From Lentisphaerota bacterium (lineage in GTDB: Bacteria > Verrucomicrobiota > Kiritimatiellia > UBA8416 > VGWJ01), in contig VGWJ01000031.1 of assembly GCA_016873635.1 (NCBI GenBank), positions 1 to 35,173 on the forward strand: DNA of 35,173 nt, in the 5' to 3' direction. Each line of letters opens with the position of its first letter. Within the stretch, counting starts at the first letter, position 1. The notes below the pieces were generated by a model, which did not search any database, was not told where the DNA came from, and saw nothing but the letters and a program-made list of their open reading frames with translations. The translations under genes were made by a program, and so were the position numbers. This document shows, one piece after another, positions 8,329 through 32,745 of the stretch.

Positions 8329-9516
8329 GTGGTGAACGGCGATACAGCGCGGCCGAACGGCGCGGGCGGCTGGTGTTTTCTGGCGCTGGCCGTCGCGTCG
8401 GTGGTCTTCAAGATCTTCATCGCTTCCCAGGGCAACAACTACGACGTGGAATCCTTTGCGCTGGTGGCGGACACGGTGCTCGACGGCCGCGTCGTGTACG
8501 CCGAGACGGCGCGCCACAACTACGGCCCGGTCTGGGCGTACGTGGCGGCCGCCGTGCGCCTGTTCCAGGAGGCGACCTTCGGCGTGCGCGCGCTGGGCCT
8601 GTTCCACATATTGACCGCGGCTTTGCTCGCGTACGTGGACGTGCTGATCGCCCTGCTGCTACGACGGCGCTACGGCGCGGGCGCCGCGGCATGGTTTCTC
8701 GCGAACCCCGTGTCGCTGCTCATCACGGGCTATCATTCACAGTTCGACAACCTGGCGGTGCTCGCGGGGCTGGCGGGCGCGCTGCTCCTCACGGAAGATT
8801 CCGCGCCCGGCGACCGCCGCTTCTATTGCGGGACACTGCTGCTGGGCGTGTCGCTGACGATCAAGCACATCATGGTCTTCTTTCCGCTGTGGCTGCTGTT
8901 CCGCAGGGCGCCGGGGCGCGCGCGCAAGCTCGCGGCCGTGCTGATTCCCTGGGCGCTTTTCGGGGCGGGGTTTGTGCCGTTCATGGGCGATGCGGCCGCG
9001 CGCGCCGGGATAGTGGACAATGTTTTCCGCTACGAGATGACCAGCATGCCGGGCTTCTACCCGCGCCTGGTGGGACTTCTCGTTCCCGCGCGCGTCTTCG
9101 ACGCGCTGCTGGGCTGGGTTCCGGTGATGTCCGGCTTCAAGAGCGTGTGGCTGGCCACGCTGCTGGGCGCGGGATGGGTCTTCCGGAGGGTTGAGGCGCG
9201 GCGCGCGCCGCTGCTCTATCTCGCGGCGCTGTGCGTGTTCTCGAGCAACCTGGCCGACCAGTACCTGGCGATTCCCCTGGCGGCGTGCGCCGTGTGGCGG
9301 CGCTCGCCGCTCGCGTGGCTGTACGCCCTGAGCGCGACCCTTTACCTGCTGGCTTCGCCCGACAACATCGGCTGCCAGCCCCCCTTTGACGCGTGGCTGC
9401 CCGCGCTGGCGCGCTGCGGCGTTTCCTACTGGCTGCCGTACGCCTTCCTCTTCGCGCTGCTGGCGGTCGAGGCGGTCCGCAGCCCGCGCCGCGCCCCCTG
9501 CCGGAACACGGGCTAG
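8329..9516 (+). CDS. Multi-span membrane protein, probable GT-C glycosyltransferase
   Basis: 395 residues with about ten hydrophobic helices. The first extracytoplasmic loop carries NNYDVESFALVADTVLDGRVVY and then HNYGPVWAY, the arrangement of acidic residues seen in GT-C enzymes (GT39/GT87/ALG-type) that take sugars from polyprenyl-phosphate donors. ANPVSLLITGYHSQFDNLAVL and LTIKHIMVFFPLWLLFRR also resemble ALG6/ALG8-like proteins. With the GT2 and FAD proteins upstream (27-base gap) it could form a lipid-linked-sugar pathway. The start is a GTG pair at 8329/8332. The stop overlaps the convergent gdhA stop within the tetranucleotide CTAG. Family assignment is moderate; substrate unknown. Confidence 0.7.
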   Translation: MVNGDTARPNGAGGWCFLALAVASVVFKIFIASQGNNYDVESFALVADTVLDGRVVYAETARHNYGPVWAYVAAAVRLFQEATFGVRALGLFHILTAALLAYVDVLIALLLRRRYGAGAAAWFLANPVSLLITGYHSQFDNLAVLAGLAGALLLTEDSAPGDRRFYCGTLLLGVSLTIKHIMVFFPLWLLFRRAPGRARKLAAVLIPWALFGAGFVPFMGDAAARAGIVDNVFRYEMTSMPGFYPRLVGLLVPARVFDALLGWVPVMSGFKSVWLATLLGAGWVFRRVEARRAPLLYLAALCVFSSNLADQYLAIPLAACAVWRRSPLAWLYALSATLYLLASPDNIGCQPPFDAWLPALARCGVSYWLPYAFLFALLAVEAVRSPRRAPCRNTG

Positions 9517-10853
9517 ACCAGCCCCTGGGCCAGCATGGCGTCGGCCACCTTCACGAAGCCGGCGATGTTGGCGCCCGCGACGAAGTTGCCCGGACAGCCG
9601 TATTCCTCGGCCGCGTCCTTGCACTGGGCGTGGATGCTCTGCATGATGGCCTTGAGGCGCGCGTCCGTCTCCTCGAAGGTCCAGCTCAGCCGCATGCTGT
9701 TCTGGCTCATCTCGAGGCCGCTGGTCGCGACGCCGCCGGCGTTGGCCGCCTTGGCGGGCGAGAAGAGCACCCGCGCCTCGAGGAACGTTTCGACCGCCTC
9801 GGGCGTGCAGGGCATGTTCGCGCCCTCGCCCACGGCCTTGACGCCGTTCTTCACGAGCGTCTTGGCGTCCTCGCCGTTCAGCTCATTCTGCGTGGCATTG
9901 GGCATGGCGATGTCGCCCGGGACCGACCAGACGTTCCGCGCCGCACCCGCTTCGACGTACTTCGCGGACTTCACCTCGTCGGCATATTCCCTGATGCGCG
10001 CGCGCTTGATTTCCTTGATGTCCTTGATGAGCTCAAGCTTGATGCCTTCCGGGTCGTGAATCCAGCCGCCGGAGTCGCTCAGGGTCACGACCTTGCCGCC
10101 GAGCTGGTGGACCTTCTCGACCGCGTAAATCGCCACGTTTCCGGACCCGGACATGACGACGGTCTTTCCTTCAATGGACTCGCCCACGTCCTTGAGCATC
10201 TCGTTCACGATGTAGGTCAGCCCGTAGCCGGTGGCCTCGTTGCGGACCAGGCTGCCGCCCCACTTCAACCCCTTGCCGGTCAGCACGCCCGTCACCTCGT
10301 TGCGCAGGCGGCGATACTGGCCGTACATGTAGCCGATCTCCCGTCCGCCCACGCCGATGTCGCCCGCCGGCACATCCGTGTCCGCGCCGATATGACGCTG
10401 CAGCTCGGTCATGAAGCTCTGGCAGAAGCGCATGACTTCGCCGTCCGACTTGCCCTTGGGATCGAAGTCCGAACCGCCCTTGCCTCCGCCCATCGGCAGC
10501 GTCGTAAGGGCGTTCTTGAATATCTGCTCGAAGCCGAGGAACTTGATGATGCCCAGATAGACCGTGGGATGGAAACGCAGGCCGCCCTTGTACGGTCCGA
10601 TCGCGCTGTTGAACTGCACGCGTATTCCCCGGTTGACCTGCACCTTGCCGTTGTCGTCCTGCCAGGGCACGCGGAACATGACGATCCGTTCGGGCTCCAC
10701 GATCCGCTCGAGAATGCCGGCGTCCGCGTAGTCCTTGCGCCGTTCCATGACCGGGCGCACGGAGTCGAGCACTTCGGACACCGCCTGGATGAATTCGGGC
10801 TGCTCCGGATTCCGATTCTTCACCGACCTCAAGACATCATCAACGACCGACAT
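9513..10853 (-). CDS. gdhA: NADP-type glutamate dehydrogenase
   Basis: Reductive amination of 2-oxoglutarate with ammonium to glutamate, the low-affinity assimilation route. 446 residues, the normal length of hexameric class I enzymes. The N-terminal domain has GPYKGGLRFHPTVYLGIIKFLGFEQIFKNAL, the catalytic-lysine motif PMGGGKGGSDFDPKGKS, and the DIGVGGREIGYM segment. The Rossmann domain has VVMSGSGNVAIYAVEK. The start follows the SD AAGGAGGTGG. The gene faces away from the NrpR-like gene and shares that intergenic region, and it is convergent with the GT-C gene. High-energy-cost GS-GOGAT genes are encoded in the same island. Confidence 0.97.
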   Translation of the reverse strand: MSVVDDVLRSVKNRNPEQPEFIQAVSEVLDSVRPVMERRKDYADAGILERIVEPERIVMFRVPWQDDNGKVQVNRGIRVQFNSAIGPYKGGLRFHPTVYLGIIKFLGFEQIFKNALTTLPMGGGKGGSDFDPKGKSDGEVMRFCQSFMTELQRHIGADTDVPAGDIGVGGREIGYMYGQYRRLRNEVTGVLTGKGLKWGGSLVRNEATGYGLTYIVNEMLKDVGESIEGKTVVMSGSGNVAIYAVEKVHQLGGKVVTLSDSGGWIHDPEGIKLELIKDIKEIKRARIREYADEVKSAKYVEAGAARNVWSVPGDIAMPNATQNELNGEDAKTLVKNGVKAVGEGANMPCTPEAVETFLEARVLFSPAKAANAGGVATSGLEMSQNSMRLSWTFEETDARLKAIMQSIHAQCKDAAEEYGCPGNFVAGANIAGFVKVADAMLAQGLV

Positions 10854-31588: not shown

Positions 31589-32745
31589 GCTGGAACTGGA
31601 AAGCGCAGCGCGAAAAACAGGCCTTTCTGGCGCTGCAGGACGGAACCGTTTTTCGCGGCTGGTCCGCGGGCGCCCCCCGCAACGCGCTGGGCGAGGTGGT
31701 TTTCAACACGGGCATGACGGGCTACCAGGAGATCCTGACGGATCCTTCCTACGGCGGCCAGTTCGTGACCATGACCATGCCGGAAATCGGCAACACGGGG
31801 ATCAACCCGGCCGACATGGAATCGCGCGGCGCATTCGCCGGCGGCCTGATCGTGCACGCGCTCAATCCGCCCAGCAACTGGCGCGCGACCGTGTCCCTTT
31901 CCGACTGGCTGGCCCGGGCGGGCATCCCGGCGCTGGCGGGCGTGGACACGCGGGCGTTGACGACGCTGTTGCGCGAGCGGGGCACGCAGCGCGGTTGCCT
32001 GGTCGTGGCGGAGGAGGAAGGCAGGGCCGTGGGCGAGGCGGAGGCCGCCGCCCGCGCGCGGGACTGGGCCGGACTGGACGGCCAGGACTACGCCTCACGC
32101 GTGACCTGCGACGCGCCGTACGGCTGGGACCCGCGGGGCGAGCTGACCCGCACCTTCGGCGCGGAGGCGGAGCTGCCGCCGGCGGACATGAAGGTCGTGG
32201 CCTTCGACTTCGGCGTCAAGTGGAACATCCTGCGCGATCTGCGGCGCTGCGGCATGGACGTCACCGTGGTGCCGGCCGGCGCGTCGGCGGCCGAGGTGCT
32301 GGCCATGCGCCCGGACGGCGTGTTCCTGTCCAACGGCCCGGCCGATCCTGCCGCGCTGACCTACGCGGTGGCGACCGCGCGCGCGCTGATCGGCAGAACG
32401 CCCGTCATGGGTATCTGCCTGGGGCACCAGATTCTGGGGCTGGCCCTGGGCGGCCGCACCTACCGGCTGAAGTTCGGGCATCACGGCTGCAATCATCCGG
32501 TCATGGACCTGGCGACGGGCAGGGTTGAGATTACGTCCCAGAATCACAACTTTGCCGTGGCGCCGGACTTGCTGCCGCCCGAAGTGGAGGTCAGTCACAT
32601 CAACCTCAACGACCGCACCGTCGAGGGCCTGCGCCACAAGCGCGCGCCCATGTTCTGCGTGCAGTATCACCCCGAGGCCGGTCCGGGGCCGCACGATCCG
32701 CGGCATCTCTTCGCGCGCTTCCGCGCGCTGATCGCAGAGGCTTGA
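31585..32745 (+). CDS. carA: Carbamoyl-phosphate synthase small (glutaminase) subunit
   Basis: Supplies ammonia from glutamine to CarB. 386 residues. The N-terminal domain has FNTGMTGYQEILTDPSYGGQFVTMT and GVDTRALTTLLRERG. The class I amidotransferase domain has nucleophile C278 (MGICLGHQILGLALGG) and the catalytic His/Glu in QYHPEAGPGPHD. Order carB-carA is the reverse of the common carAB. It closes the glutamine-consuming run; a convergent amidase gene ends 22 bases beyond, with no obvious terminator between. Confidence 0.97.
   Translation: MSWNWKAQREKQAFLALQDGTVFRGWSAGAPRNALGEVVFNTGMTGYQEILTDPSYGGQFVTMTMPEIGNTGINPADMESRGAFAGGLIVHALNPPSNWRATVSLSDWLARAGIPALAGVDTRALTTLLRERGTQRGCLVVAEEEGRAVGEAEAAARARDWAGLDGQDYASRVTCDAPYGWDPRGELTRTFGAEAELPPADMKVVAFDFGVKWNILRDLRRCGMDVTVVPAGASAAEVLAMRPDGVFLSNGPADPAALTYAVATARALIGRTPVMGICLGHQILGLALGGRTYRLKFGHHGCNHPVMDLATGRVEITSQNHNFAVAPDLLPPEVEVSHINLNDRTVEGLRHKRAPMFCVQYHPEAGPGPHDPRHLFARFRALIAEA

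What the first reader, a model, noticed from the sequence alone, without database searches (positions are those of the whole stretch)
9513..32745. Nitrogen-assimilation and glutamine-use island carrying two different nitrogen regulators
GDH, GSIII, both GOGAT subunits and four further glutamine-linked genes (purF, pyrG, carB, carA) are contiguous, with an NrpR-like regulator and a NifA-like sigma54 activator embedded between gdhA and glnN. NrpR is best known as a 2-oxoglutarate-released repressor in methanogens and NifA as a sigma54 activator; having both next to the same target genes in a bacterium suggests combined repression and activation of one metabolic unit. No PII or ammonium transporter gene is visible.
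Basis: partly seen in the sequence, partly recalled or inferred. Interest (0 to 1): 0.75.

Follow-up and report, generated by a model that had tools for sequence, protein, structure and literature searches.

The report
Archaeal-type repressor guards bacterial glutamate enzymes
In many uncultured bacteria a relative of the archaeal nitrogen repressor NrpR sits back to back with a gene for a predicted glutamate-making enzyme, with a conserved DNA palindrome between them that is likely its binding site, while in this genome a neighbouring sigma54-type activator would switch on glutamine synthesis separately, so the two ways of capturing ammonium are probably wired to two different switches.

Summary
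The genes are real: gdhA, nrpR, a NifA-like activator, then glnN-gltB-gltD-purF-pyrG-carB-carA. Joint control of one unit is not supported; two circuits are visible. (1) nrpR is divergent from gdhA in 44 of 58 relatives. Between them lies a palindrome, GGCA-N4-TGCC (window 11007-11026). A pattern fitted to the window copy matches once in the 3.24-Mb genome. No site of 15 bits or more stands before gdhA in 27 NrpR-less loci. It recurs in other phyla, before gdhA or a glutamate-synthase-like gene, and the partner changed at least 7 times on a quick nrpR tree. It differs from the archaeal operator (GGAA-N6-TTCC). (2) glnN has a sigma54-type promoter (16779) and two upstream TACA-N4-TGTA-type sites; a third stands before the NifA-like gene, as in 20 of 25 loci. 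So NrpR likely represses gdhA and itself, and the NifA-like protein likely activates the glnN operon. No PII or ammonium transporter was found in the 92%-complete assembly, but 40 of 42 NrpR genomes searched have PII, so NrpR does not generally replace it. Binding, 2-oxoglutarate response and sign of control are untested.

The parts
9513..10853 (-). gdhA, NADP-specific glutamate dehydrogenase
   Evidence: NF006929 775 bits, Pfam ELFV; 55-83% identical copies stand divergent from nrpR in relatives
11007..11026 (.). predicted NrpR operator AAAAGGCAAAAATGCCTTTT (GGCA-N4-TGCC palindrome)
   Evidence: top PWM hit of the window, 24.1 bits, with the window left out of the PWM; only match of a pattern fitted to it in the 3.24-Mb genome; dyad in 32 of 45 intergenic regions, 0.2 expected
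11065..12069 (+). nrpR: winged helix + one NRD, 334 aa
11948..13660 (-). NifA-like sigma54 activator (GAF-AAA+-Fis HTH), GAFTGA loop intact; start codon 13651 or 13660, read from the sequence
   Evidence: match to a solved Nif-specific regulator, 9qq6_C, over residues 18-519 of 565
13677..13688 (.). predicted autoregulatory site TACA-N4-TGTA before the NifA-like gene
   Evidence: such a site in 20 of 25 NifA-like loci (window included) against 3 of 343 control windows
13779..16391 (-).
16648..16659 (+). predicted upstream activator site 1, TACAAACTTGTA
16679..16690 (+). predicted upstream activator site 2, TACATTAATGTC, 31 bp from site 1
16779..16794 (+). predicted sigma54 -24/-12 promoter TGGCACATGGCCTGCG, 71 bp before the glnN ATG
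   Evidence: score 12.7 of 14.9; 22 of 30 glnN loci reach 12.5 against 2.2% of shuffles
16866..18944 (+). glnN, glutamine synthetase type III
   Evidence: PF12437, PF18318; start read from the sequence
18947..23473 (+). gltB, glutamate synthase large subunit
   Evidence: NF008730 1757 bits
23470..25029 (+). gltD, glutamate synthase small subunit
   Evidence: TIGR01317 626 bits
25026..26501 (+). purF, amidophosphoribosyltransferase
   Evidence: TIGR01134 502.5 bits
26619..28304 (+). pyrG, CTP synthase (start inferred)
   Evidence: NF003792 822 bits
28307..31588 (+). carB, carbamoyl-phosphate synthase large subunit
   Evidence: NF003671 1633 bits
31585..32745 (+). carA, carbamoyl-phosphate synthase small subunit
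   Evidence: TIGR01368 444 bits

Best explanation
The island likely holds two separate circuits side by side: a bacterial NrpR that likely binds a GGCA-N4-TGCC palindrome between itself and gdhA and would repress both genes, and a NifA-like activator that likely drives the glnN-gltB-gltD-purF-pyrG-carB-carA genes from a predicted sigma54 promoter through TACA-N4-TGTA sites. Shown by sequence: gene content; the divergent arrangement; the conserved palindrome and its lack before gdhA in NrpR-less genomes; its presence in other phyla before gdhA or a glutamate-synthase-like gene; the sigma54-type promoter and upstream sites before glnN; the same kind of site before the NifA-like gene. Inferred: that NrpR is the protein that binds the palindrome (adjacency, co-occurrence, absence in NrpR-less genomes). 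Inferred: that binding represses; the palindrome is expected to lie across promoter elements, but no promoter was mapped and none could be aligned to it. Inferred: that 2-oxoglutarate releases NrpR as in methanogens (recalled knowledge of the family), so that nitrogen shortage would derepress gdhA. Inferred: that the NifA-like protein binds TACA-N4-TGTA, activates glnN and limits its own synthesis, and that glnN to carA form one transcript (gaps of -4 to +2 bp, 117 bp before pyrG).
For: Divergent gdhA-nrpR in 44 of 58 relatives. Dyad GGCA-N4-TGCC in 32 of 45 intergenic regions against 0.2 expected from shuffles. All 8 perfect matches of TACGGCANNNNTGCCGTA in 80 genomes lie directly upstream of nrpR; none is in the 38 NrpR-less genomes. 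One match of a pattern fitted to the window copy in its own genome. Operator score of 18 or more before gdhA: 39 of 45 in NrpR genomes (40 of these 45 trained the PWM) against 0 of 27 in NrpR-less ones; at 12 or more 43 of 45 against 1 of 27. Independent loci, under 70% identical to any training nrpR: 10 of 13 with gdhA partner, 18 of 22 with Glu_synthase partner, 4 of 15 with other or unknown partner. In L193 and L194, where nrpR and gdhA are in tandem, the site stands before gdhA. Partner over 120 non-redundant loci: gdhA 65, Glu_synthase-like 24, other 21, contig edge 10; at least 7 partner changes on a quick nrpR tree. glnN: sigma54-type promoter in 22 of 30, ACA-N4-TGT in 25 of 30 against 2.95 expected. 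NifA-like gene: such a site in 20 of 25 loci against 3 of 343 control windows. rpoN is present.
Against: No binding, expression or ligand data. The window's own palindrome departs from the consensus at the flanks (AA for AC, TT for GT), and two matches to the family consensus with one mismatch lie elsewhere in this genome, against 0 for the reversed control pattern; they score 12.2 and 11.4 bits and lie inside long ORFs. 6 of 45 NrpR gdhA loci score under 18, and 11 of 15 independent 'other' loci have no site of 18 before nrpR. Sites just 3' of nrpR in L181, L189 and L196 (the last 16.6 bits) and one inside nrpR in L038/L154 (24.0 bits) are unexplained. The NifA-like gene and the TACA-N4-TGTA site are only loosely linked: 22 of 24 genomes with it and 3 of 6 without it have the site before glnN (my tally; Fisher p 0.04), so another activator may also use it. 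5 of 25 NifA-like loci lack the site. No sigma54 element of 12.5 or more stands before gltB in the loci tested where glnN is not in front (L060, L070/L133, L135). Sign of control on gdhA is not shown by sequence.
Confidence: 0.72

Rival explanations
1. One metabolic unit under joint NrpR repression and NifA-like activation.
For: Both regulators are adjacent to the same gene block. A weak NrpR-like site (10.3 bits) precedes the NifA-like gene in the window, and one of 16.9 bits precedes it in L057.
Against: No NrpR-type site before glnN in the window; no TACA-N4-TGTA-type site before gdhA. The weak site before the NifA-like gene is not conserved: the other 24 of 25 loci score 8.9 or less. Linkage of the two modules is rare: NifA-like in 6 and glnN in 3 of 120 loci.
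Confidence: 0.1
2. NrpR binds the palindrome but activates gdhA, or responds to another ligand (for example glutamine or ammonium surplus), so gdhA would be on when nitrogen is plentiful.
For: GDH is often the high-ammonium route (recalled). The palindrome centre lies 111-193 bp from the gdhA start in 43 of 45 loci, far enough for an activator. The ligand site was not tested.
Against: Known NrpR is a repressor (PMC2723118, passages). In many loci the site also sits close to nrpR itself, which fits autorepression.
Confidence: 0.15
3. The palindrome is read by a different regulator or is only an nrpR autoregulatory site, and gdhA is next to it by chance.
For: Binding is inferred only.
Against: No site of 15 bits or more before gdhA in 27 NrpR-less loci. 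It stands before gdhA when nrpR is in tandem (L193, L194). gdhA or a glutamate-synthase-like gene is the divergent partner in 89 of 110 loci with room.
Confidence: 0.08
4. The NifA-like protein is a true NifA serving nitrogen fixation, and its place here is incidental.
For: Similarity to NifA over GAF, AAA+ and HTH domains.
Against: Below the TIGR01817 cut-off. Only two short, weak P-loop matches for NifH in the genome. The NifA-type TGT-N10-ACA motif (recalled) is not clearly enriched before glnN: 6 of 30 against 3.06 expected. Orthologues lie beside glnN (G387, G087) or near PII genes (G098, G315, G267) in relatives (positions).
Confidence: 0.07

Closest known systems
NrpR of methanogenic archaea (Methanococcus maripaludis; solved domain of MJ0159, 3nek)
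   Different: One NRD in a 334-aa protein (3nek covers residues 321-540 of its longer chain). Predicted site GGCA-N4-TGCC, not GGAA-N6-TTCC (archaeal site from PMC2723118; 0 of 45 regions carry it). Predicted target is gdhA or a glutamate-synthase-like gene plus itself, not nif, glnA, glnK-amtB; one strong site in this genome with the patterns used.
NifA / NtrC-type sigma54 activators
   Same: GAF, AAA+ with GAFTGA, Fis HTH; sites upstream of a -24/-12 promoter.
   Different: Below the NifA model cut-off, no nitrogenase found, predicted site TACA-N4-TGTA, predicted target glnN and itself.
PPDK/phosphoenolpyruvate synthase and rifampin phosphotransferase ATP-binding domains
   Different: Fused to an N-terminal KaiC-like domain whose consensus lacks a Walker A lysine; no PEP-synthase family model passes its cut-off.

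Membership tests
NrpR family | N-terminal winged helix followed by NRD | tested here: met
   PF08461 36 bits, PF01995 242 bits, both over cut-off; fold match to 3nek
NrpR family | Operator GGAA-N6-TTCC | tested here: not met
   0 of 45 gdhA-nrpR regions; GGCA-N4-TGCC in 32 of 45 instead. So the claim is a bacterial variant, not the archaeal operator type
NrpR family | Targets nif, glnA, glnK-amtB | tested here: not met
   The one match of the fitted pattern lies between gdhA and nrpR; no PII or Amt found, no nifH; other glutamine synthetases were not searched
NrpR family | Release by 2-oxoglutarate | not testable with these tools
   Needs a binding assay
NifA | Passes curated NifA model | tested here: not met
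   503.7 bits against 528.85
NifA | Genome with nitrogenase | tested here: not met
   NifH search gave two partial P-loop matches only, 38-41 residues; 92% complete assembly; nifD was not searched
sigma54-dependent activator | GAFTGA loop, AAA+ domain, rpoN in genome | tested here: met
sigma54 promoter at glnN | -24/-12 element at conserved place | tested here: met
   22 of 30 glnN loci at 12.5 or more, shuffles 2.2%, reverse strand 2 of 30
Glutamate synthase (divergent partner in other phyla) | Complete glutamate-synthase domain set | tested here: inconclusive
   Only part of PF01645, 58-65 bits, in each of the 5 members scanned, of 25 proteins in the cluster; enzyme activity inferred

The most novel reading that the evidence does not exclude
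Bacterial NrpR is a one-operator glutamate switch spread over many phyla: it keeps a new-type operator (GGCA-N4-TGCC) and guards the cell's glutamate-making step, swapping gdhA for a glutamate-synthase-like enzyme as needed. Glutamine synthesis runs on its own sigma54 circuit, so the two halves of ammonium assimilation have separate master switches. A pseudo-KaiC/ATP-grasp protein is a third, unknown part of the glutamate side.
Probability: 0.45. Interest if true: 0.82.

Novelty: new variant of a known kind. Interest (0 to 1): 0.7.

Why it matters
NrpR is known from archaea, and a 2009 paper notes it in 'certain Bacteria' (PMC2723118, passages). In the searches made here (open-licence library only, listings seen) I saw no paper that gives its bacterial operator or target. 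This report supplies both as testable predictions, across several phyla. They give a direct handle on how such bacteria choose between GDH and GS-GOGAT.

Tried and rejected
NrpR as a substitute for PII: rejected; PII is in 40 of 42 NrpR genomes searched and 29 of 38 others. Absence of PII and Amt in this genome may be a gap in a 92%-complete assembly. NrpR control of the NifA-like gene: not conserved. Archaeal operator GGAA-N6-TTCC: 0 of 45 regions. A larger NrpR regulon: of 44 places (either strand, mismatches up to one) in the 42 NrpR genomes, 18 stand upstream of nrpR; the other 26 compare with 52 for the reversed control pattern (my tally). Weaker operators would be missed. A -10/-35 promoter aligned to the palindrome: no clear signal apart from the palindrome itself. 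A scan of genome contigs with the single window protein found nothing; an alignment found 400, of which the best 80 were kept, so named loci lean towards close relatives. Archaeal NrpR sequences were not put in the tree, so transfer from archaea was not tested; the tree is a quick one with 37 of 116 inner branches weak. The structure paper asked for by DOI is not held. Pontiella agarivorans paper: passages only, no expression data on these genes there. For other papers only search listings were seen.
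Full report
OBSERVATION. The window is one whole contig of a 3.24-Mb, 145-contig assembly, 92% complete. The named records nearest to its NrpR are Kiritimatiellae and Lentisphaerae MAGs. One gene was missed: a PPDK_N-domain protein at 13779-16391. gdhA (minus) and nrpR (plus, ATG 11065) are divergent. The NifA-like gene (minus) is convergent with nrpR, its ORF running past its domains into the nrpR 3' end. glnN, gltB, gltD, purF, pyrG, carB and carA follow in one direction with gaps of -4 to +2 bp, except 117 bp before pyrG (coordinates; pyrG start inferred).

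DISTRIBUTION. PF01995 is in 59 of 387 genomes drawn from the phylum, the window's own included. I fetched the neighbourhoods of the other 58. gdhA is divergent from nrpR in 44 of 58; in L075 it lies elsewhere in the locus; 13 show no gdhA of over 50% identity, some of them because nrpR is at a contig end.

OPERATOR. In the 45 gdhA-nrpR regions (window included), GGCA-N4-TGCC occurs in 32 against 0.2 expected from dinucleotide shuffles; 41 have at least 7 of its 8 core bases. The consensus is ATACGGCAATATTGCCGTAT. The window copy, AAAAGGCAAAAATGCCTTTT at 11007-11026, is its best PWM site: 24.1 bits against 10.3 for the next, with the window left out of the PWM. Ten mononucleotide shuffles gave maxima of 0 to 18.3. 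A pattern fitted to the window copy matches once in the whole genome. I searched 80 genomes (42 of the 59 NrpR genomes, and 38 without NrpR) for TACGGCANNNNTGCCGTA with up to one mismatch. All 8 perfect matches lie directly upstream of nrpR; none is in an NrpR-less genome. Of 44 places in the NrpR genomes 18 stand upstream of nrpR; the remaining 26 compare with 52 for the reversed control, and the NrpR-less genomes have 13 (my tally). This search does not reach the window's own copy, but gave two other places in its genome; they score 12.2 and 11.4 bits and lie inside long ORFs.

CONTROLS. Before gdhA, a score of 18 or more: 39 of 45 in NrpR genomes, 0 of 27 in NrpR-less genomes; at 12 or more, 43 of 45 and 1 of 27; one of the 28 NrpR-less loci was dropped for a short upstream, and 10 of the 38 NrpR-less genomes have no such gdhA. 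The first figure is partly circular, as 40 of the 45 made the PWM. For an independent test I used 50 nrpR loci less than 70% identical to any training nrpR: 10 of 13 with gdhA partner, 18 of 22 with a Glu_synthase-like partner and 4 of 15 with other partners reach 18. Over the 77 of 80 named loci with room, 56 reach 18 before nrpR against 7 of 2025 control windows. By position the sites of 18 or more in such control windows are: before gdhA in L193 and L194, where nrpR and gdhA are in tandem; before a second nrpR in L180 and L199; between a Glu_synthase-like gene and a PPDK_N gene in L153; and just 3' of nrpR in L181 and L189, unexplained. L154 (and its counterpart L038) has a further site inside nrpR, unexplained.

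PARTNER. In many loci, mostly outside the window's phylum (Thermodesulfobacteriota and others), nrpR is divergent from a protein of about 550 aa with part of a Glu_synthase domain (PF01645). Over 120 non-redundant loci the divergent partner is gdhA in 65, this protein in 24, other in 21, and unknown at contig ends in 10. On a quick tree of 119 NrpR proteins the partner changed at least 7 times. So the palindrome and a putative glutamate-forming step stay together while the enzyme changes. That the second protein makes glutamate is inferred.

GLUTAMINE SIDE. In the 30 glnN loci returned (window included; best of 113 genomes with a match among 146), 22 have a -24/-12 element of 12.5 or more, against 2.2% of shuffles and 2 of 30 on the reverse strand. 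ACA-N4-TGT occurs in 25 of 30 against 2.95 expected, and TACA-N4-TGTA in 16 against 0.1. Counting sites with one end base free, 25 of 30 have at least one and 11 have two at 31-34 bp. The window has three such sites in 35 kb: two before glnN and one directly before the NifA-like gene. Such a site lies there in 20 of 25 NifA-like loci (24 genomes, window included) against 3 of 343 control windows. Genomes with the NifA-like orthologue have the site before glnN in 22 of 24, genomes without it in 3 of 6 (my tally; p 0.04). In relatives the gene lies near glnN (G387, G087) or PII genes (G098, G315, G267) by the positions. The genome has rpoN, and nifH was not found. The simplest reading is that the NifA-like protein activates glnN and restrains itself. 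A different activator is not excluded.

PII AND AMT. None found in the assembly. PII is in 40 of 42 NrpR genomes searched and 29 of 38 others, so NrpR is not a PII substitute in general.

LITERATURE. PMC2723118 (passages): NrpR occurs in many Euryarchaeota and 'certain Bacteria'; archaeal operator GGAA-N6-TTCC; targets nif, glnA, glnK-amtB, molybdate and alanine transport. No paper on the bacterial operator was seen in the searches listed under Why it matters.

VERDICT. Real and conserved. The island view gives way to two modules, one of which is a widely kept, untested bacterial NrpR-glutamate switch with its own predicted operator type.

Noticed in passing
window 13779-16391; L161, L162, L175, L176, L180, L195, L199: A protein of about 870 aa, 36-60% identical over its length in the 25-row alignment, stands near nrpR in 31 of 120 loci: KaiC-like fold without Walker A lysine plus a PPDK_N/ATP-grasp domain. 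In L153 an NrpR-type site precedes it, and in L199 it lies between an nrpR copy and gdhA. Function unknown.
   Followed up: partly
L181:11066, L189:11085, L196:11083: A second NrpR-type palindrome lies just 3' of nrpR in three loci; where the next gene was scanned (L181) it is a convergent PhzF-like gene.
   Followed up: no
L038:10085, L154:10308: An NrpR-type palindrome of 24.0 bits inside nrpR itself in one lineage.
   Followed up: no
gdhA-nrpR regions of relatives: A second dyad with wider spacing, GGCA-N6-TGCC, occurs in 12 of 45 regions, perhaps a second, weaker operator.
   Followed up: partly
G000 whole assembly: No PII and no ammonium transporter found, unlike 13 and 14 of 14 control genomes; may be an assembly gap.
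   Followed up: partly
L141 and window: L141 shares gltB-gltD, PPDK_N, gdhA-nrpR and, about 5 kb on, purF-pyrG-carB at 69-76% identity, so the glutamine-use block is kept in at least one relative.
   Followed up: no
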